37,831 bases of DNA from an uncultured Burkholderiales bacterium. Its GTDB lineage: Bacteria > Pseudomonadota > Gammaproteobacteria > Burkholderiales > Burkholderiaceae_C. This document shows, in pieces, positions 27,865 through 34,327 of this stretch; the first letter of the stretch is position 1; each line of letters starts with the position of its first letter. Below the pieces are notes generated by a model. It had not been told where the DNA came from. It saw nothing but the letters and a program-made list of their open reading frames with translations, and ran no database searches. The stretch covers positions 1-37,831 of the forward strand of contig CAITHK010000238.1 of the NCBI GenBank assembly GCA_903892175.1, read 5' to 3'. Position numbers and translations under genes: made by a program.

Positions 27865-30600
27865 ATGGTTGGCATGGAAAACACCTACGCCACACCCGCC
27901 GAGACACCCACGACGCCGCGTTTCGCCCCTGCGCATTTCAGCGTCAACCAGCAGACCTATGCCTATGTGGATTTGCCCACGGTGTGCGGCGAACGCTTGC
28001 AGCAGTTGCCCATCGTGTTGCGTTTGTTGTTGGAGAACGCCATCCGCCACATGCAAGGCAGCGAGCGCGAGCAAGCGGTGCAAGCCATCTTCGATTGGCT
28101 GCACACCGGCACCAGCGAAGCCGAGATTGCATTTCAACCCGGCCGTGTGCTGATGCACGACACCACCAGCACCCCCGCCTTGGTGGACATCGCGGCCATG
28201 CGCAACGCGCTGCACGAAGCGGGTGTGGACCCTGCGGTGCTCAACCCCGGTTTGCCCGTCGATGTGTCCATCGACCACTCGCTGGCGGTGGAAGTATTTG
28301 CCGTGCGCGACGCCGTGACAGTGAACTTGCAGCACGAAATTCGCCGCAACGGCGAGCGCTACCGCTTTTTGCGCTGGGCTGCCTCGGTGCTGCAAGGGGT
28401 GCGCATTCACCCGCCTGGCACGGGCATCATGCACACCATCAACCTAGAGCAACTCGCCACTGTGGTGACCACCCAAGACAAACAGGGTGTCACCTGGGCC
28501 GTGCCCGACATGATGATTGGCACCGACAGCCACACGCCCATGGTCAACGGCATTGGCGTGTTGGGCTGGGGCGTCGGGGGCTTGGAAGCCCAGACCGTGA
28601 TGTTTGGCATGCCCACCATGCTGCGCATTCCCGATGTGGTGGGCGTCAAGCTGGTGGGCCAGTTGCCGCCAGCGACACTGGCCACCGATTTGGCCTTGAC
28701 GGTGACCCAGCGTTTGCGCCAGCTGGGTGTGACCGGCGAGTTTGTGGAGTTCTATGGTCCGGGGGTGTCCACCTTGAGCGCGGGCGACCGCGCCGTGGTG
28801 GCCAACATGGCGCCTGAATATGGCGCCACCACGGGCTTTTTTGGCATCGATGCCCACACCTTGGCTTACCTCAAAACCACCGGGCGCACCGACGCCGCCA
28901 TTGGCTTGGTCGAGGCTTATGCCCAACACGCTGGCCTGTGGTTCGACCCACAGGCTGAGCCACGCTACACCCAAACCCTCACCATCGACCTGAGAACCAT
29001 TGGCTTGCACGTGGCGGGTCCGCGTCGTCCGCAAGACCTGTGGCTGTATTCGCAAACCCCCGAGGCCCTGGCCGACGCGGCGTTCACGCCTTCAGATCAC
29101 TCAGACCACACGGGCCAATCAGTTCAGGCAGCCAGTGCAGACATTCCTGACCCCGCCAACAATCTGCCGCGCCATCCGGTGGCCATTGCCGCCATCAGCA
29201 GTTGCACCAACACCACCGATCCTGCGCTGTTGGTGGCCGCAGGCCTGCTGGCGCGCAACGCGCGCGCCCTGGGTTTGCGCGTGCCTGCGTGGGTCAAAAC
29301 CTCGTTGGCCCCGGGCTCGCCTGCGGCGGCCTCTTACCTGCAACGTGCGGGCCTGTTGGACGACCTCGACGCGCTGGGCTTTGGCATAGTGGGCTATGGC
29401 TGCACCAGTTGCATCGGCAACACCGGCCCATTGACCGCAGCTGTGCGCGACGCGCAGCGGGCAGGCCAGTGCAAGGGCGTGGCCATTTTGTCGGGCAACC
29501 GCAACTTTCCGGGGCGCGTGCACCCCGACCTGGAGTTGAGCTTCATCATGTCGCCGCCCCTCGTCATTGCTTTTGCTTTGAGTGGCGACGCGCAAAAAAA
29601 CTTGGCCACCGAGCCGCTGCACACAGCACCCAACGGCCAAGCGGTGTACCTTCAAGACATCTGGCCCACCCACCAAGAAATTGCTGCCCACGTGGCTCTG
29701 GGTGCCAACCCCGACGACTACCAGCGCGACTTTGTGCAGGCCTCTGCCAATCCCTTGTGGCACGCCTTGCAAGCCCCCCACAGCCCGCTGTTTCCGTGGG
29801 ACGAGCGCTCCACCATCTTGCGACGCCCCCCGTTTGCCGCCGTCACCGAAGGCAGCCAACTGGGCCACTACAGCGCCTACCCCTTGTTGGTGGTGGGCGA
29901 CGACGTGACCACCGACCACATCTCGCCCGCCAGTGCCATTCCCCCCGACAGCCTGGTGGCCGACTTCTTGGTGGCACGCGGCGACGACCGCCGCGACTTG
30001 AATGTGTTTGCCTCACGCCGTGGCAACTGGGAGGTCATGCTGCGTGCGGCCTTCCACAGCAAAACCTTGGCCAACCTGCTGCAGCCAGGCCTGCCCGTGG
30101 CGCACACCTTGCACGTGCCCAGTGGCGAGGTGATGCCCATATGGGACGTGGCCCAGCGCTACCGCGACGCGGGCGACTCGGTGGTGCTTGTGGCAGGTGA
30201 GCGCTATGGCATGGGCTCGTCACGCGACTGGGCCGCCAAAGGCCAACGCCTGCTGGGCATACGCGCGGTGTTGGCCGTGAGCTTTGAGCGCATCCACCGC
30301 TCCAACCTCATTGGCATGGGCATCTTGCCCCTGCGCATGCCTGCCGGCATGAGCCCTCATACCCTGCAGCTGCAAGCGGGTGACCGGTTGGAGGTGGACG
30401 CCACGCCCGACGGGCTGCAACCCCGGGGTGCCATTCGCGTGTGTCTGCACCGCGCCGATGGACGCGAAGAAAGCTTCGATGCCACGGCCGCGGTGGAAAC
30501 GCAACTGGAGCTCAGCTTGCTGCGCGATGGCGGGGTCATTCCATCCATTTTGCACAGCACCATCCAAGCGCACCGTGCAGACCAGGCCTCCCCAGCTTGA
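27865..30600 (+). CDS. AcnA-type aconitate hydratase
   Basis: This is a 911-residue aconitase of the AcnA/IRP1 type. The 4Fe-4S ligands are Cys447 (SSCTN) and Cys513/Cys516 (GYGCTSCIGNTGP). IGTDSHTPMVNGIG (about 218-231) and GSSRDWAAKG near residue 793 hold active-site residues, and the C-terminal swivel domain (FERIHRSNLIGMGILPL) is present. It should interconvert citrate and isocitrate or a related tricarboxylate. Its setting next to a Bug receptor and a GntR regulator suggests an accessory catabolic paralogue rather than the housekeeping enzyme. ATG 27865 has no ribosome-binding site and abuts the inverted repeat; ATG 27874 is equally possible, and a leaderless message is conceivable. Confidence 0.9.
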   Translation: MVGMENTYATPAETPTTPRFAPAHFSVNQQTYAYVDLPTVCGERLQQLPIVLRLLLENAIRHMQGSEREQAVQAIFDWLHTGTSEAEIAFQPGRVLMHDTTSTPALVDIAAMRNALHEAGVDPAVLNPGLPVDVSIDHSLAVEVFAVRDAVTVNLQHEIRRNGERYRFLRWAASVLQGVRIHPPGTGIMHTINLEQLATVVTTQDKQGVTWAVPDMMIGTDSHTPMVNGIGVLGWGVGGLEAQTVMFGMPTMLRIPDVVGVKLVGQLPPATLATDLALTVTQRLRQLGVTGEFVEFYGPGVSTLSAGDRAVVANMAPEYGATTGFFGIDAHTLAYLKTTGRTDAAIGLVEAYAQHAGLWFDPQAEPRYTQTLTIDLRTIGLHVAGPRRPQDLWLYSQTPEALADAAFTPSDHSDHTGQSVQAASADIPDPANNLPRHPVAIAAISSCTNTTDPALLVAAGLLARNARALGLRVPAWVKTSLAPGSPAAASYLQRAGLLDDLDALGFGIVGYGCTSCIGNTGPLTAAVRDAQRAGQCKGVAILSGNRNFPGRVHPDLELSFIMSPPLVIAFALSGDAQKNLATEPLHTAPNGQAVYLQDIWPTHQEIAAHVALGANPDDYQRDFVQASANPLWHALQAPHSPLFPWDERSTILRRPPFAAVTEGSQLGHYSAYPLLVVGDDVTTDHISPASAIPPDSLVADFLVARGDDRRDLNVFASRRGNWEVMLRAAFHSKTLANLLQPGLPVAHTLHVPSGEVMPIWDVAQRYRDAGDSVVLVAGERYGMGSSRDWAAKGQRLLGIRAVLAVSFERIHRSNLIGMGILPLRMPAGMSPHTLQLQAGDRLEVDATPDGLQPRGAIRVCLHRADGREESFDATAAVETQLELSLLRDGGVIPSILHSTIQAHRADQASPA

Positions 30601-30604
30601 CAGC

Positions 30605-31501
30605 ATGAGCGCAGACACCTCTATGGCCGCCCAAGTGTTGGCCTACATCCACGCTCAGGGTTTAGCGCCCGGCAGCCACTTGCCCGCACAAGCCATGGCC
30701 GATCACTTGAAAGTGTCGCGCTCGCCTGTCAATAACGCACTCGATTGGCTGCACAGCCAAGGCGTGTTGCGTCACGAAAAAAACCGGGGCTATTTTTTGG
30801 CCAAAGCGCTGGACGTGAACGACCGCAAATTGGCCAAAGCCCTGGGTCGGCAAGCCACTGACGCCGTCAGCGCTGCTTACTTTCGGGTGGCCGAAGACCT
30901 GCTGCAAGGCAGCTTGCCCAACGCGTGTTCCGAGGCCTTGCTCAAAACCCGTTACGCATTGACCAACGCGCAACTCCAAGCCGTGTTGAGCCGCATCGCA
31001 CAAGAGGGCTGGGCCCACAAAAAACCGGGCTATGGCTGGGAGTTCTCCACCATGCTGACCACGCCCGACAGCCTGTTGCAGTCGTACCGCTTGCGCATTG
31101 CGCTAGAACCTGCAGCTTTGCTAGAGCCCGACTTTTACCTCGACCCCCAGGTGCTGCAAAGCTGCCGCGCCGCTGAGCTGCACTTGCTGGCAGGCGGCAT
31201 TGAAGCCGACACGCCCGACCAACTGCACCAGCGGGGTGTGCGTTTTCATGAGTCGTTGGTGGAGGCCTCGGGCAACCCGTTTTTCATCGACACCATCCAA
31301 CGCCTCAACCGCGTGCGCCGCTTGCTGTCGTACCGCTCCATGCAAGACCGTCAGCGTTACAAAGAGCACTGCCAACAACACCTGCGCATCCTCGACTTGC
31401 TGGAAAAAGGCCGCAATGCCGAGGCCAGTGAAGCATTGCGCCGGCACCTCACCCGCACGCTGAAAAATCTGCAAAAAATTCGGGGGATTTTGAAGGCTTA
31501 G
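30605..31501 (+). CDS. GntR/FCD regulator with an apparent second winged-helix region
   Basis: This is a 298-residue regulator starting four bases after the aconitase stop. Residues 5-66 form a GntR-type winged helix (MADHLKVSRSPVNNALDWLHSQG core), residues 88-150 look like a second one (LLKTRYALTNAQLQAVLSRI, EGWAHKKPGYGW wing), and about 155-290 is an FCD ligand domain. The last includes RFHESLVEASGNP (His215) and EHCQQHLRIL with RRHLTRT as the metal-binding helices. FCD regulators sense organic acids, here perhaps a tricarboxylate. It probably controls the aconitase and Bug (7) genes through the inverted repeat at 27836. Its last 135 bases recur downstream at 32866-33000 with only synonymous differences. 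Confidence 0.88.
   Translation: MSADTSMAAQVLAYIHAQGLAPGSHLPAQAMADHLKVSRSPVNNALDWLHSQGVLRHEKNRGYFLAKALDVNDRKLAKALGRQATDAVSAAYFRVAEDLLQGSLPNACSEALLKTRYALTNAQLQAVLSRIAQEGWAHKKPGYGWEFSTMLTTPDSLLQSYRLRIALEPAALLEPDFYLDPQVLQSCRAAELHLLAGGIEADTPDQLHQRGVRFHESLVEASGNPFFIDTIQRLNRVRRLLSYRSMQDRQRYKEHCQQHLRILDLLEKGRNAEASEALRRHLTRTLKNLQKIRGILKA
31364..31498 (+). repeat. gntR 3'-end repeat, copy A (inside intact gene)
   Basis: These 135 bases encode the last 45 residues of the GntR regulator. They align without gaps to 32866-33000 at an offset of 1502 bases. I count 14 mismatches (about 90% identity) in 12 codons, every one synonymous. The first 27 bases (31364-31390) are identical in both copies. Confidence 0.93.
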
Positions 31502-31505
31502 GACT

Positions 31506-31534
31506 TTTACAAGCGCAGTGGCGTGTTGTATTCT
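31506..31534 (+). promoter_or_regulatory. Sigma70-type promoter of the winged-helix/NTase pair
   Basis: TTTACA (31506-31511) and TATTCT (31529-31534) are separated by 17 bases, close to the -35/-10 consensus pattern. The promoter starts right after the gntR stop codon, and its -10 lies within the left half of the perfect palindrome. An alternative -10, TACAAT, lies at 31553-31558 but lacks a partner. Confidence 0.55.
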
Positions 31535-31557
31535 CTATTCGCGAATAGAGAATACAA
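31526..31557. promoter_or_regulatory. Perfect 32-bp palindrome, autoregulatory operator candidate
   Basis: TTGTATTCTCTATTCG (31526-31541) is followed with no spacer by its exact reverse complement CGAATAGAGAATACAA (31542-31557). It ends ten bases before the ATG at 31568 and covers the putative -10. A site of this kind ahead of a gene for a DNA-binding protein strongly suggests self-repression. Confidence 0.85.
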
Positions 31558-31567
31558 TCGTTGCATC

Positions 31568-32113
31568 ATGGTTGCCGCCAAATCAAACCCTCAAATTTCT
31601 CTGCGACCCCAAGACGTGGTCGTCTTGCTGCGTTTGTGTCTCGACAAAGAAACACCGCCAACTTATGCGGCGTTGGCTGCGGATGTGTGTATGACAGCAT
31701 CTGAAGTACACGCCAGTGTCAACAGATCAGTCCTTGCTCAATTACTTCGCAAAGATGCCGATGGAAAACCTCGGGTTTTGTTGGCGCAACTCAAATTGTT
31801 TTTGCAACACGGTGTGCGCTATTGTTTTCCGGTCGTTCGTGGAGAAATGACACGTGGTATGCCCACAGGTCATGCAGCCCCCCCGTTGGTTGACAAGCTG
31901 GTGGGAAGCAATGAGCCACCGCCTGTTTGGCCTGATAAAAATGGCAAAGTGCGTGGCCTGACGTTTCAACCGCTTTACCCCACTGTTCCTCAGGCCGCAG
32001 CAAGCATTCCCAAGCTCTACGAGTTACTGGTTTTGGTGGACGCCTTGCGGGGGGGCAATGCACGTGAGCGTTCCATTGCGGTGAAGGAACTCGACGCAAA
32101 ATTGTCAGCATGA
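31568..32113 (+). CDS. Winged-helix DNA-binding protein paired with a nucleotidyltransferase
   Basis: This is a 181-residue protein with a MarR-like winged helix at about residues 12-65 (LRPQDVVVLLRLCL, TYAALAADVCMTASEVHASVNRSV). A conserved-looking central part follows (LFLQHGVRYCFPVVRGEMTRGMPT) and a C-terminal helix ending DALRGGNARERSIAVKEL. I recall this family as one commonly found directly before small nucleotidyltransferase-like genes, but I cannot name it. The next gene starts within its stop codon (ATGA). It probably acts as repressor/antitoxin-like partner, binding the 32-bp palindrome just upstream. The ATG at 31568 follows the palindrome; an in-frame TTG/GTG upstream would lie inside it. 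Confidence 0.78.
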   Translation: MVAAKSNPQISLRPQDVVVLLRLCLDKETPPTYAALAADVCMTASEVHASVNRSVLAQLLRKDADGKPRVLLAQLKLFLQHGVRYCFPVVRGEMTRGMPTGHAAPPLVDKLVGSNEPPPVWPDKNGKVRGLTFQPLYPTVPQAAASIPKLYELLVLVDALRGGNARERSIAVKELDAKLSA

Positions 32114-32830
32114 GCCATCTCAACCCAAACGATCCCAACGTCGCCATGATTGAGCGCGTGGCCCAGCGGCTCGGCTCGGAGTTATGCAAGGGCTTGGTCT
32201 TTGTCGGCGGAGCTGCAGCTGGGTTGTTGATCACTGATATGGCGCTTCCTGGCATCCGTCGAACCGACGATGTCGATGTTGTGACCCCAGCGCAGGCCTT
32301 GGCGGATTACCACCTCTTAGAAACTCATTTGAGAGCGCTCGGCTTTGTAGAGGACATGCGACCCGAGGCACCTATTTGTCGCTGGGTGGTAGACGGCATC
32401 ACCGTCGATATGATGCTCACCAAAGAAGAGATTTCTTGGTTTTACCAACCGCTGGTATGCCTTGAGCGTGGCCACCGCACAGGCTCAAACATTACCGAAC
32501 GGAATCACCATCAAAGTTATTCGCGCGCCTGAATTTGTCGCAACCAAATTAGAGGCTTTTTATGGAACAGGTCACCATGATTTCCTCTTCAGTCATGACA
32601 TGGGCGACATCATTGGTGTGATCGATGGTAGAGATACTCTGGTGGCTGAATGTGCGCAAAGTGCTCGTCCATTGAGAGAGTATCTGGCACTGCAATTCAA
32701 AGCCTTGCTTCGCAACACTGTCTTTTTAGATGCACTGCCTGGCCATTTGCAACCTGATCCAGCGAGCCAAGAGCGGTTAACTCAATTGATGGAGAAGCTT
32801 TATAAGATTTCAGAGTTGCCGGTCGATTGA
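32110..32830 (+). pseudogene. AbiEii-like nucleotidyltransferase, single-base frameshift
   Basis: The N-terminal part has a nucleotidyltransferase fold: FVGGAAAGLLITD (GG at 33-34), RRTDDVDVV (Asp54-x-Asp56) and a third acidic residue in GITVDMML (Asp100). This set occurs in AbiEii/MNT-type enzymes. Reading frame 1 would run to 32532 as nonsense, whereas the second frame gives NRWYALSVATAQ followed by RAPEFVATKLEAFYGTG and SHDMGDIIGVIDGR, all characteristic of the family. One extra T in the run at 32432-32434 explains it. Without it the gene reads EEILGFTNRWYALSVATAQ and would encode 239 residues. It overlaps the winged-helix gene by four bases (ATGA). It may be a true inactivation or a sequencing error. 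Confidence 0.8.
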
Positions 32831-32865
32831 TATGCACATACCCTGAACGTCTTTCCTGCTGCACC

Positions 32866-33000
32866 GAGCACTGCCAACAACACCTGCGCATCTTGGATTT
32901 GCTGGAGAAAGGCCGCAACGCCGAGGCCAGTGAGGCGCTTCGCAGGCATCTCACCCGTACGTTGAAAAATCTGCAAAAAATCCGGGGGATTTTGAAGGCT
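32866..33000 (+). repeat. gntR 3'-end repeat, copy B (orphan remnant)
   Basis: This is an isolated copy of the last 45 codons of the GntR regulator, ending in its own TGA at 33001-33003. It has no upstream part of the gene. It encodes exactly the same residues as copy A despite 14 base differences, so it stems from a diverged but functional allele. The 35 bases between the nucleotidyltransferase stop and this repeat hold nothing I recognise. Confidence 0.93.
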
Positions 33001-33005
33001 TGAGG

Positions 33006-33191
33006 CTACGTCAAGTCGTCTATCTTGCCCTCGACTGGACGGAATCGTTCAGGCATAAGCGCAATTTTCTTCAGCGCGTCTCGAATAACTGAAATAGATC
33101 GACGAGCAACAACTGGATCTTCAGCGGCTAAAAGATCGTGTAGGCGTTGAAGGGCTGCAATTGACTGCGCTGAATACTTTATGGATGGCAT
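33006..33191 (-). pseudogene. C-terminally truncated RelE/ParE-family toxin
   Basis: This is a 61-residue remainder of a ParE/RelE toxin, starting MPSIKYSAQSIAALQRLHDLL and ending MPERFRPVEGKIDDLT. ParE/RelE toxins usually run to 90-100 residues; the C-terminal strands with the active-site region are missing. The TAG stop (33006-33008) is provided by the junction, two bases beyond the gntR remnant, so the truncation coincides with the edge of the repeat. The start codon overlaps the end of the antitoxin gene by 13 bases, the normal order antitoxin then toxin. It is probably inactive. Confidence 0.8.
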
Positions 33192-33466
33192 ACGGGTGGG
33201 GGTAATTCTTTGTCCGTACCCCATGTGTCCATCCAAGCCATGACCTCATCCTGCGTGGCGTGCAAACCTGTTTCGTCGAAGTGTTTGATCGCGTTGTCGC
33301 AGCTTTGCTGCCATGCGTATTCACGCTCTTTTTGTTCGATCAGTTGATTGATGGCCTCTGTAGCAAGCGCGTGCGCCGACCGCTTTTGACGCAAGGCAAT
33401 GATCTTGAGCTTTTCCCGAGCATTGACATCGAGACGTATTGACATTGGTACTGTGGTGGTGGCCAT
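33179..33466 (-). CDS. Ribbon-helix-helix antitoxin (CopG/RelB-like)
   Basis: This is a 95-residue protein. Residues 5-50 form a ribbon-helix-helix: the strand VPMSIRLDVNAREKLKIIA, then helices RQKRSAHALATEAINQLIEQK. The C-terminal part (to about 85) would wrap the ParE-type toxin. Such antitoxins neutralise the toxin and repress their own promoter. A short perfect palindrome lies 20 bases upstream of the start. The toxin gene is truncated, so this antitoxin may persist as a free repressor or anti-toxin for related modules. Confidence 0.83.
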   Translation of the reverse strand: MATTTVPMSIRLDVNAREKLKIIALRQKRSAHALATEAINQLIEQKEREYAWQQSCDNAIKHFDETGLHATQDEVMAWMDTWGTDKELPPPVCHP

Positions 33467-33498: not shown

Positions 33499-33636
33499 CT
33501 ATATTCTTTTGGGCGCAGATGCGTTCGTTTTGCCATTAATTCAACAACAACCAATTTCAATCCAACCTAGAGGTTTTGACCCATGTCTCAGCTCGAATCG
33601 ACATGTGCTTCTGAGCTGCTGACAAGTCATAGATGG

Positions 33637-33661
33637 ATGTATATACTAAATGTAGATACAT
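33637..33661. promoter_or_regulatory. Imperfect inverted repeat upstream of vapB
   Basis: ATGTATAT (33637-33644) and AGATACAT (33654-33661) are inverted copies with one mismatch, ending 16 bases before the vapB ATG. VapBC complexes commonly bind such repeats to repress their own operon. The remaining bases between 33499 and 33636 show nothing further. Confidence 0.5.
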
Positions 33662-33677: not shown

Positions 33678-33908
33678 ATGACCTACGCCCGCATTTTTCA
33701 GTCTGGCAACAGCCAAGCTGTGCGTTTACCCAAAGAATTTCGGTTTGAGCAAGACCGCGTCGAGATCTTTCGGCAAGGCAACGACGTCGTGCTGCGCCAA
33801 GTGCCCGCCAACGCTGCTGCTGTGTTTGACTTGCTGGGTAGCTTGCCCGCTGATTTCATGGCCGACGGCCGTCAAGACACCCCGCCTCAAGAGCGCGAGG
33901 CGCTTTAA
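33678..33908 (+). CDS. vapB: VapB-type antitoxin (AbrB/MazE-like swapped-hairpin)
   Basis: This is a 76-residue antitoxin. Residues 1-45 form the swapped-hairpin DNA-binding fold (ARIFQSGNSQAVRLPKEFRF, then DRVEIFRQGNDVVLRQ). The C-terminal tail contacts and inhibits the VapC ribonuclease. The ATG at 33678 is preferred over an upstream start at 33633 because AAGG is correctly spaced and the hairpin then begins at the N-terminus. The vapC start follows the stop by two bases. An inverted repeat just upstream is a likely autoregulatory site. Confidence 0.92.
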   Translation: MTYARIFQSGNSQAVRLPKEFRFEQDRVEIFRQGNDVVLRQVPANAAAVFDLLGSLPADFMADGRQDTPPQEREAL

Positions 33909-33910
33909 CA

Positions 33911-34327
33911 ATGGCCCGTGTGCCCACCCGTTATTTGCTGGACACCAACATTTGCATCTACATCGCCAAAGGGCAGCCAGCGGCTGTGCGCCACAGGTTG
34001 GAGGCACTGTCGATACAGCAATTGGCCATGTCCACCATCACCGTAGGCGAACTGCGCTTTGGTGCTGAAAAAAGCCAATCCCGCGAACGCGCTTTGGCCA
34101 CCATTGCGCAATTGGTGCAGATGATTCAACCCTGCGCCTTGCCCATGGCCGCTGCTGAGCACTATGGCCATGTCCGCGCCACGCTGTCGCAACAGGGCTT
34201 GCCGATTGGCAACAACGATCTCTGGATAGCCGCTCACGCATTGGCAGAGGGGTGGACGCTGGTGACCAACAACTTGCGCGAATTCAGCCGCGTGCCTGGG
34301 CTGCGGGTGGAAAACTGGGTGGTCTGA
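33911..34327 (+). CDS. vapC: VapC-type PIN-domain ribonuclease toxin
   Basis: This is a 138-residue PIN-domain toxin. The acidic active-site residues are present: Asp11 (LLDTN), Glu47 (VGELRFG) and Asp103 (GNNDLWIAAHA), with the TNN stretch near 119-121 in the fourth position. VapC toxins cut specific RNAs, often initiator tRNA or rRNA loops, using Mg2+. The gene is intact and paired with vapB, so this module appears functional, unlike its truncated ParE-type neighbour. It is convergent with the DUF6671 gene 46 bases downstream; that gap has no clear terminator. Confidence 0.93.
   Translation: MARVPTRYLLDTNICIYIAKGQPAAVRHRLEALSIQQLAMSTITVGELRFGAEKSQSRERALATIAQLVQMIQPCALPMAAAEHYGHVRATLSQQGLPIGNNDLWIAAHALAEGWTLVTNNLREFSRVPGLRVENWVV

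What the first reader, a model, noticed from the sequence alone, without database searches (positions are those of the whole stretch)
31364..33000. Small cassette inserted at the 3' end of gntR, flanked by diverged copies of the gene tail
Seen: the last 135 bp of the GntR gene (31364-31498) recur 1502 bp downstream (32866-33000) without gaps. There are 14 base differences in 12 codons, all synonymous, so both copies encode the same 45 residues. A promoter, a perfect palindrome and a winged-helix/nucleotidyltransferase gene pair lie between them. Inference: a tandem duplication in this genome would be near identical or would decay at random. Purely synonymous divergence implies that the two tails evolved in separate functional alleles. 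The simplest history is that a cassette carrying its own gntR tail entered the gene, restored it, and left the original tail behind. Some integrative elements behave this way at tRNA or other gene ends, but no integrase is visible here, so capture may be by homologous recombination.
Basis: partly seen in the sequence, partly recalled or inferred. Interest (0 to 1): 0.78.

Follow-up and report, generated by a model that had tools for sequence, protein, structure and literature searches.

The report
Defence gene cassette displacing gntR's tail
In freshwater Limnohabitans-type bacteria a small, now broken, two-gene candidate defence cassette sits at the end of a regulator gene, with a spare copy of the gene's tail behind it; the two tails come from different versions of the gene, which points to recombination between strains rather than to a copying error or an integrase.

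Summary
Confirmed: the last 135 bp of gntR (31364-31498) recur at 32866-33000 with 14 differences in 12 codons, all synonymous. Between them lies the candidate defence pair PDC-M21A/B; its second gene is frameshifted here.

Five alleles of four relatives were compared. Two have one tail and no cassette, one has one tail and other genes, G031 has the cassette with one tail, and sister species G085 has tail-cassette-tail.

It fits G085, where the two tails belong to different allelic groups. In G000 history is overwritten: the B tails of G000 and G085 share a junction yet differ at 15 of 117 bases, 14 synonymous.

Best reading: homology-facilitated illegitimate recombination anchored in gntR, then homologous exchange through the orphan tail. 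No tyrosine-integrase match lies on the window contig.

Displaced tails also occur at six other genes in loci sampled for M21; synonymous changes dominate in only three of them. Known kind of event; its allelic divergence is informative.

The parts
27865..30600 (+). aconitase gene upstream of gntR, part of the left homology arm
   Evidence: PF00330 2.9e-140; homologous DNA upstream of gntR in G031, G085, G063 and G096
30605..31501 (+). gntR: GntR/FCD transcriptional regulator, 298 aa, the target gene
   Evidence: PF00392 and PF07729
31364..31501 (+). tail A: intact 3' end of gntR (45 codons + TAG)
31526..31557 (.). perfect 32-bp palindrome just upstream of M21A, probable operator
   Evidence: a TTCGC..GCGAA inverted motif lies within 80 bp upstream of M21A in 24 of 43 loci, against 0.7% of 6935 genome windows
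31568..32113 (+).
   Evidence: PADLOC PDLC04515 3.6e-41; Pfam none
32110..32532 (+). N-terminal fragment of PDC-M21B, nucleotidyltransferase-like, frameshifted
   Evidence: PADLOC PDLC04516 5.8e-24, profile positions 6-107
32462..32830 (+). C-terminal fragment of PDC-M21B
   Evidence: PADLOC PDLC04516 6.3e-28, profile positions 117-230
32831..32865 (.). spacer between M21B and tail B, shared with G085 and not seen in G031: marks a common right junction
   Evidence: its 21-mer occurs with 0 mismatches only in G000 and G085 among 84 genomes
32866..33003 (+). tail B: orphan gntR 3' end (45 codons + TGA)
33006..33466 (-). ribbon-helix-helix antitoxin-like gene (33179-33466) and a small ORF (33006-33236), a second insertion after tail B
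   Evidence: PF20605 4.1e-05, below its curated cut-off; homologous DNA in G013, G006 and G022 without a gntR tail match; absent after tail B in G085
33559..33636 (.). leader segment found next to Bug1 or vapB in relatives; not in the two empty alleles
33678..34327 (+). VapBC-like pair (MazE/AbrB-type antitoxin 33678-33908, PIN toxin 33911-34327), right flank of the slot
   Evidence: PF04014 7e-09, PF01850 9.8e-18

Best explanation
The duplicated tail is the scar of a recombination between two chromosomes carrying different gntR alleles. Incoming DNA holding acnA-gntR-M21 (the arrangement seen in G031) recombined homologously in acnA/gntR with a cassette-free gntR-vapBC chromosome (as in G063 and G096 C237). 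Its other end, behind the M21 pair, joined without homology to the recipient's gntR 135 bp before the stop codon. This keeps one intact gntR, inserts M21 and leaves the recipient's tail as an orphan in front of vapBC. The process is homology-facilitated illegitimate recombination (HFIR). The orphan tail then gave later incoming gntR-...-vapBC DNA a homologous foothold, so tail B and what follows it (for example the RHH pair) could be exchanged again; that would explain why B stays free of coding damage although its left junction is shared by two species. Shown: the repeat, the empty and occupied alleles, the shared junction, mosaic identities along the locus, synonymous-only divergence. Inferred: the direction, the order of events, the entry route (for example natural transformation), and the refreshing of tail B. 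The cargo probably was an autoregulated toxin-antitoxin-like defence pair (inference) and its second gene is broken in this genome.
For: Empty alleles with one tail: in G063 and G096 C237, alignment to the window ends at 31500 and resumes at 33637. Cassette with one tail in G031. Tail-cassette-tail in G085 with the same spacer before tail B. In G085 the left part (acnA-gntR-M21) is 93.3% identical to G031 over 4691 bp, while the two long matches of a 20-kb stretch of the same G085 contig to G031 are 82-83%; M21 is 97.6% identical to G031 and 88.9% to G000, but its last stretch is 94.8% to G000. The B tails of G085 and G000 and their vapBC belong to the G063/G096 C237 group (vapBC 95-97% against 92-93%; tail residues RR/TR against RK/TS), so in G085 left and right halves have different ancestry. 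G000B-G085B: 14 synonymous and 1 non-synonymous difference, P 9e-7 under random substitution. No PF00589 match on contig C238, the window; 8 elsewhere in the genome, 7 over the cut-off. HFIR is described in PMC3240628 (abstract and outline) and proposed for displaced gene 3' ends in Vibrio T6SS arrays in PMC5361080 (passages).
Against: G031, the donor-type allele, could instead have lost tail B when Bug1 came beside the cassette. In G000 tail A is not of the G031 group and M21 is 88-89% to both relatives, so a second exchange has to be assumed there. The sequence that flanked M21 on the donor side at the right junction is unknown, so microhomology could not be checked. Only four relatives (G031, G063, G085, G096) gave a long match to the tail, and three of them are metagenome-assembled (records named). 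The breakpoint test was post hoc and its polarity is ambiguous. PMC5361080 itself notes that HFIR is orders of magnitude rarer than ordinary homologous recombination (passage). At other loci with displaced tails the changes are often not synonymous.
Confidence: 0.6

Rival explanations
1. Merodiploid route: recombination first produced two complete gntR copies of different allelic origin with M21 between them, and a later deletion removed the 5' part of the second copy, leaving tail B.
For: Gives the same final structure with ordinary homologous recombination followed by one deletion. Tail B is truncated on its right side in G085, so losses do occur here. Assembly G096 holds two complete gntR loci about 87% identical on separate contigs, which is either a mixed bin or two alleles in one cell.
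Against: In the contigs read, no two complete copies lie in tandem; the tail scan of 57 named gntR loci found a downstream tail only in L135 (G085).
Confidence: 0.18
2. Remnant of a site-specific integrative element that carried its own gntR tail (as recalled for e14 in icd) and later lost its integrase.
For: Restored 3' end, synonymous differences, displaced tail, empty site in relatives; 27 identical bases at the left edge of the repeat. At another locus (L107) a phage-integrase-family fragment lies near a displaced tail.
Against: No PF00589 match on the window contig; G031 has the cassette without the second tail; the tail is coding sequence under constraint, so 27 identical bases prove little; M21B relatives were not found in the phage records or IMG/VR by the searches made.
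Confidence: 0.1
3. Insertion with long target duplication as described for restriction-modification genes: the inserting unit itself duplicates about 100 bp of target, and the copies diverged afterwards.
For: Same geometry (passages in PMC1643837, and PMC3031569).
Against: An untranslated copy would decay at random; here 14 of 14 differences are synonymous, and A and B have different nearest relatives.
Confidence: 0.07
4. Assembly artefact or strain chimera: the genome is estimated to be 6.55% contaminated.
For: The genome is a fragmented assembly of 312 contigs.
Confidence: 0.03

Closest known systems
Homology-facilitated illegitimate recombination; displaced effector 3' ends in Vibrio cholerae T6SS arrays (PMC5361080, passages; PMC3240628, abstract and outline)
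   Same: One homologous anchor, one non-homologous join; a new module enters next to a conserved sequence and an old gene end is shifted downstream.
   Different: Target here is an ordinary regulator gene that stays intact; cargo is a candidate defence pair; both tails encode identical protein.
Insertion with long target duplication (Nobusato et al. 2000, known here only through passages in PMC1643837, PMC3031569 and PMC4978471)
   Same: Small defence-type gene insertion bracketed by a long direct repeat.
   Different: Cargo is not restriction-modification; repeats differ at synonymous sites and derive from different alleles. How alike the original repeats are was not seen.
Small variable segments flanked by direct repeats (PMC2884548, passages)
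   Same: 10-18% of small variable segments in three species are flanked by direct repeats; illegitimate recombination is suggested there.
   Different: Most of those repeats are under 30 bp; here 136 bp, nearly all coding.
Recombinase-free small genomic island H47 of E. coli (PMC5426353, abstract and outline)
   Same: Small island without its own site-specific recombinase, between direct repeats.
   Different: Short repeats and shown excision there; no excision data here.
Gene-tail-restoring integrative elements (e14 in icd; recalled, no paper seen)
   Same: Displaced tail downstream, gene end replaced by a synonymous version.
   Different: No integrase match on this contig; cassette also present without the second tail in G031.
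AbiE-type and other winged-helix/nucleotidyltransferase pairs (recalled); PADLOC PDC-M21
   Same: Two-gene operon with palindromic operator-like site; both PDC-M21 models match.
   Different: No Pfam match for M21B and only DnaD_N at E 0.32 for M21A; only weak profile matches to solved nucleotidyltransferases (5uvd 7e-5, 8an4 AbiEii-family 0.011).

Membership tests
HFIR insertion scar | homologous arm at one end | tested here: met
   Homology through acnA-gntR in the five alleles compared; in G085 this arm is G031-like against background
HFIR insertion scar | non-homologous junction at the other end | tested here: met
   The repeat starts abruptly at 32866; the 60 bases before tail B do not resemble those before tail A
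HFIR insertion scar | microhomology at the illegitimate join | tested here: inconclusive
   Donor flank unknown; beyond G000 and G085 the spacer 21-mer gave only a 2-mismatch hit in G015 in 84 genomes, which I take for chance
HFIR insertion scar | uptake of linear DNA, RecA dependence | not testable with these tools
   needs transformation experiments
Insertion with long target duplication | empty allele with one copy, occupied allele with a long direct repeat | tested here: met
Insertion with long target duplication | cargo is a restriction-modification system | tested here: not met
   PDC-M21 pair
Site-specific integrative element | integrase in the element | tested here: not met
   No PF00589 match on C238; 8 on other contigs. 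Serine recombinases were not searched
Site-specific integrative element | identical core at both ends | tested here: inconclusive
   27 identical bases at the start of both tails, but coding and conserved
PDC-M21 candidate defence system | both component models matched, adjacent, same strand | tested here: met
PDC-M21 candidate defence system | both genes intact | tested here: not met
   M21B split into two ORFs in the window, shortened to 180 aa by a stop in G031, single 239-aa ORF in G085
AbiE (type IV toxin-antitoxin) | AbiEii/AbiEi family profile match | tested here: not met
   Pfam up to E 1: nothing for M21B, only DnaD_N at 0.32 for M21A

The most novel reading that the evidence does not exclude
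Gene 3' ends serve as general, integrase-free docking sites for small defence or toxin-antitoxin cassettes. Each arrival brings or keeps one gene tail and leaves another as an orphan, and the orphan tail then acts as the homology anchor for the next arrival, so cassettes accrete (M21, then the RHH pair) without any recombinase of their own.
Probability: 0.2. Interest if true: 0.65.

Novelty: new member of a known kind. Interest (0 to 1): 0.42.

Why it matters
It is seldom clear how small defence and toxin-antitoxin pairs without integrases enter a chromosome. A diverged, purely synonymous tail is an allele-labelled scar: it tells that two chromosomes met, where the homologous arm lay and which side was illegitimate. 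If such scars are common, screening for orphan gene tails would give a census of integrase-free cassette capture.

Tried and rejected
Specific link of displaced tails to M21 as cargo: rejected as unproven. At E 1e-8, 2 of 39 M21 intervals (L107, L109) and 1 of 164 shifted control intervals (L102, not followed) had a flanking direct repeat; too few to claim a difference. At the looser E 0.001 short repeats were also listed for L100, L113, L115, L116, L123 and L126; only L123 was looked at and none is counted. A translated flank comparison gave many weak hits and was used only for L107 and L109.

Tail scan 1: 106 loci including the window, 1251 ORFs, 1.58 Mb, 15 candidate rows, 7 of them paralogues, 8 tail-only: gntR in the window and in G085, L107, L109, two hits at locus ends (L151, L166, not testable) and two 28%-identical receptor rows (dropped). 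Tail scan 2: 80 further M21 loci, 1058 ORFs, 1.13 Mb, 11 tail-only rows; I examined L225, L236, L258, L287 and L291 and left out L218, L219, L230 (short frames, not examined), L237 and L251 (locus edges) and L283 (repeated element). In L236, L258, L287 and L291 M21 is not between gene and tail; L225, L230 and L283 were flagged as having it between. Contexts were fetched for 40 of 47 non-own places and for 80 of 87 new places.

Cassette on phages: no match in 50,697 phage records; none in IMG/VR with a single protein or with alignment A2. 114 plasmid records have M21B relatives, all under 60% identical.

Source of the spacer before tail B: only G000, G085 and a 2-mismatch hit in G015.

rpoB as backbone marker gave no match in G031, G085 and G096; dnaK and a 20-kb contig stretch were used.

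Paper searches: 'PDC-M21' 0 papers; a six-term search on tails and integrase-less islands, four terms required, 0 papers; a search for e14-like tail replacement gave nothing pertinent in its 12 listed; a Limnohabitans search gave nothing on this locus in its 12 listed but led to PMC5426353.
Full report
Observation. The repeat is real and as described: 136 nt, 31364-31499 and 32866-33001, spacing 1502; 14 differences in 12 codons over 135 bp, all synonymous, with different stop codons. A random set of 14 substitutions would be all synonymous with probability about 8e-8. The gene is a GntR/FCD regulator directly downstream of an aconitase gene.

Cargo. The pair between the tails matches PADLOC candidate defence system PDC-M21 (A 5.5e-41, B 2.1e-68 with the intact pair of G085; window pieces). 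At E up to 1, M21B has no Pfam match and M21A only DnaD_N at 0.32. M21B has conserved GG and T.DVD motifs (alignment of 16; reading them as a nucleotidyltransferase signature is recalled) and weak profile matches to solved nucleotidyltransferases. The window copy of M21B is split into two ORFs; in G031 it is cut to 180 aa by a stop; G085 has one 239-aa ORF. The palindrome is a family feature: a TTCGC..GCGAA inverted motif lies within 80 bp upstream of M21A in 24 of 43 loci (three of them this locus in G000, G031 and G085), against 0.14% of shuffles and 0.7% of 6935 genome windows. This suggests autoregulation, as in toxin-antitoxin operons (inference). M21A relatives occur in 45 of 399 family genomes, 49 of 399 order and 43 of 369 class genomes (samples overlap and each count includes the window's own genome).

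Host. The genome belongs to a genus of 84 held genomes that includes Limnohabitans sp. JirII-31 (G063 C1 and NZ_NESA01000001.1 are both 744,320 bases long).

Alleles of the slot between gntR and vapBC. In 84 genus genomes a long match to the gntR tail (118 bp or more, 88% or better) was found only in G000, G031, G063, G085 and G096; G069 gave a 27-bp match at E 9e-4. The cassette was found only in G000, G031 and G085. Both searches scored only the best 4-6 candidates a genome, and a more distant gntR (63% at protein level in G027) is not seen by them. G063 and G096 C237: gntR, then about 30 bp, then vapBC. G096 C163: gntR, then a receptor gene, a hydrolase-like gene, a MarR-like gene and Bug1, then vapBC (names by eye). 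G031: gntR, M21, Bug1, vapBC. G085: gntR, M21, tail B cut 18-20 bp before its end, the 33559 leader, vapBC, Bug1. G000: gntR, M21, tail B, RHH pair, leader, vapBC. In the downstream DNA held (up to 8 kb) of 57 named gntR loci, tail duplication was found only in G085's own record, L135 (the window's own record may be left out there).

Ancestry. By background, G085 is closer to G000 than to the others (dnaK region 93.9% against 90.2% to G063; 20-kb contig stretch 88-89% to G000 against 80-85% in the long matches to G031, G096 and most of G063, with one G063 piece at 89%). Locally this is overturned: G085 acnA-gntR-M21 is 93.3% identical to G031, and M21 97.6%. Its tail B and vapBC go with G063, G096 C237 and G000 (vapBC 96-97% against 93%; residues RR/TR against RK/TS). 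The last part of the cassette and the spacer in front of tail B are G000-like. So, by inference, the tail-cassette-tail layout existed before the G031-like import in G085, and left and right halves have different histories. In G000 the gene is 96-99% identical to the empty allele G096 C237 over most of its length, but the final 111 bp hold 11 differences against 19 in the preceding 786 (P 4.5e-4; cut chosen after inspection). Because that empty allele is itself G063-like in exactly this tail (3/111) and in vapBC (98.7%), the exchange may have happened in either genome.

Tail B over time. G000B and G085B share their left junction yet differ at 15 of 117 bases, 14 synonymous (P 9e-7 under random change). 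A relic ageing since the common ancestor should not look so. The economical reading is that at least one tail B was replaced by a functional allele later, through homologous exchange between orphan tail and vapBC. In G085 the cut edge of tail B runs into AATTCAACA, which also occurs beside the RHH pair in G000; a lost RHH pair there is possible, but the evidence is thin.

Mechanism. A homologous left arm, an abrupt right junction, empty alleles, two allelic ancestries and no PF00589 match on the contig fit homology-facilitated illegitimate recombination (PMC3240628, abstract and outline), which Kirchberger et al. proposed for displaced gene ends in T6SS arrays while noting its rarity (PMC5361080, passages). 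A two-step merodiploid route would leave the same product and is not excluded; the G096 assembly even holds two complete gntR loci on separate contigs, though this may be a mixed bin. The geometry equals the insertion with long target duplication known for restriction-modification genes (passages); the allele-specific tails argue that, here at least, the duplication comes from two chromosomes and not from the insertion act.

Generality. Displaced 3' tails without upstream homology also occur at an exonuclease/endonuclease-family gene (L107, 70 bp at 76%, M21 and a 265-aa gene between), at a gene in L109 that I take for hsdS by eye (no Pfam match; 46 bp at 91%, M21 and, by eye, a PIN/RHH pair between), at a zinc-binding dehydrogenase (L236, 74 bp at 95%, PDC-M05A/B between), at hsdR (L258, 57 bp at 86%, PDC-S23 between), at a metallophosphoesterase (L287, 72 bp at 85%) and at an M21B gene itself (L291, 88 bp at 95%; named by its position behind M21A, no Pfam match); L225 is doubtful (6.7 kb apart). 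Synonymous against non-synonymous-codon differences are 3:1 (L236), 6:2 (L258), 8:3 (L287), 2:2 (L291), 7:10 (L107), 1:3 (L109) and 6:4 (L225), so the strict synonymous pattern of gntR is not general. These loci were chosen for M21, so the frequency of defence cargo is biased by sampling, and selection for keeping the gene intact would by itself favour 3' ends.

Verdict. A clear, instructive member of a known kind of event.

Noticed in passing
window:32110-32830: M21B is frameshifted in the window and has a premature stop in G031; only G085 of the three has a single long ORF. The cassette may be under repeated inactivation.
   Followed up: partly
window:37278-37831: The Bug1 receptor gene occupies three positions in relatives: before vapB (G031, G096 C163), after vapC (G085), after the LysR gene (G000, G063).
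   Followed up: partly
L058, L059 (G096 C237 and C163): One metagenome-assembled genome holds two gntR loci about 87% identical with different downstream genes: either two alleles or a mixed bin.
   Followed up: no
L236:2428-4883: PDC-M05A/B pair (nucleotidyltransferase-domain protein plus small partner) sits between a zinc-binding dehydrogenase gene and a displaced 74-bp copy of its tail.
   Followed up: partly
L258:10758-14700: A RhuM/Fic-domain gene matching PDC-S23 sits between hsdR and a displaced 57-bp hsdR tail.
   Followed up: partly
L107:425-5175: An exonuclease/endonuclease-family gene with a displaced, diverged tail; M21 pair and an unknown 265-aa gene between; a broken phage-integrase-family gene on the other side.
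   Followed up: partly
L291:5717-7968: The 3' tail of an M21B gene is itself duplicated, with a small SH2-domain ORF between gene and orphan tail.
   Followed up: partly
upstream of M21A in many loci (e.g. L091, L093, L125): Palindromic operator-like motif (ATTCGC..GCGAAT) in 24 of 43 M21 loci.
   Followed up: yes
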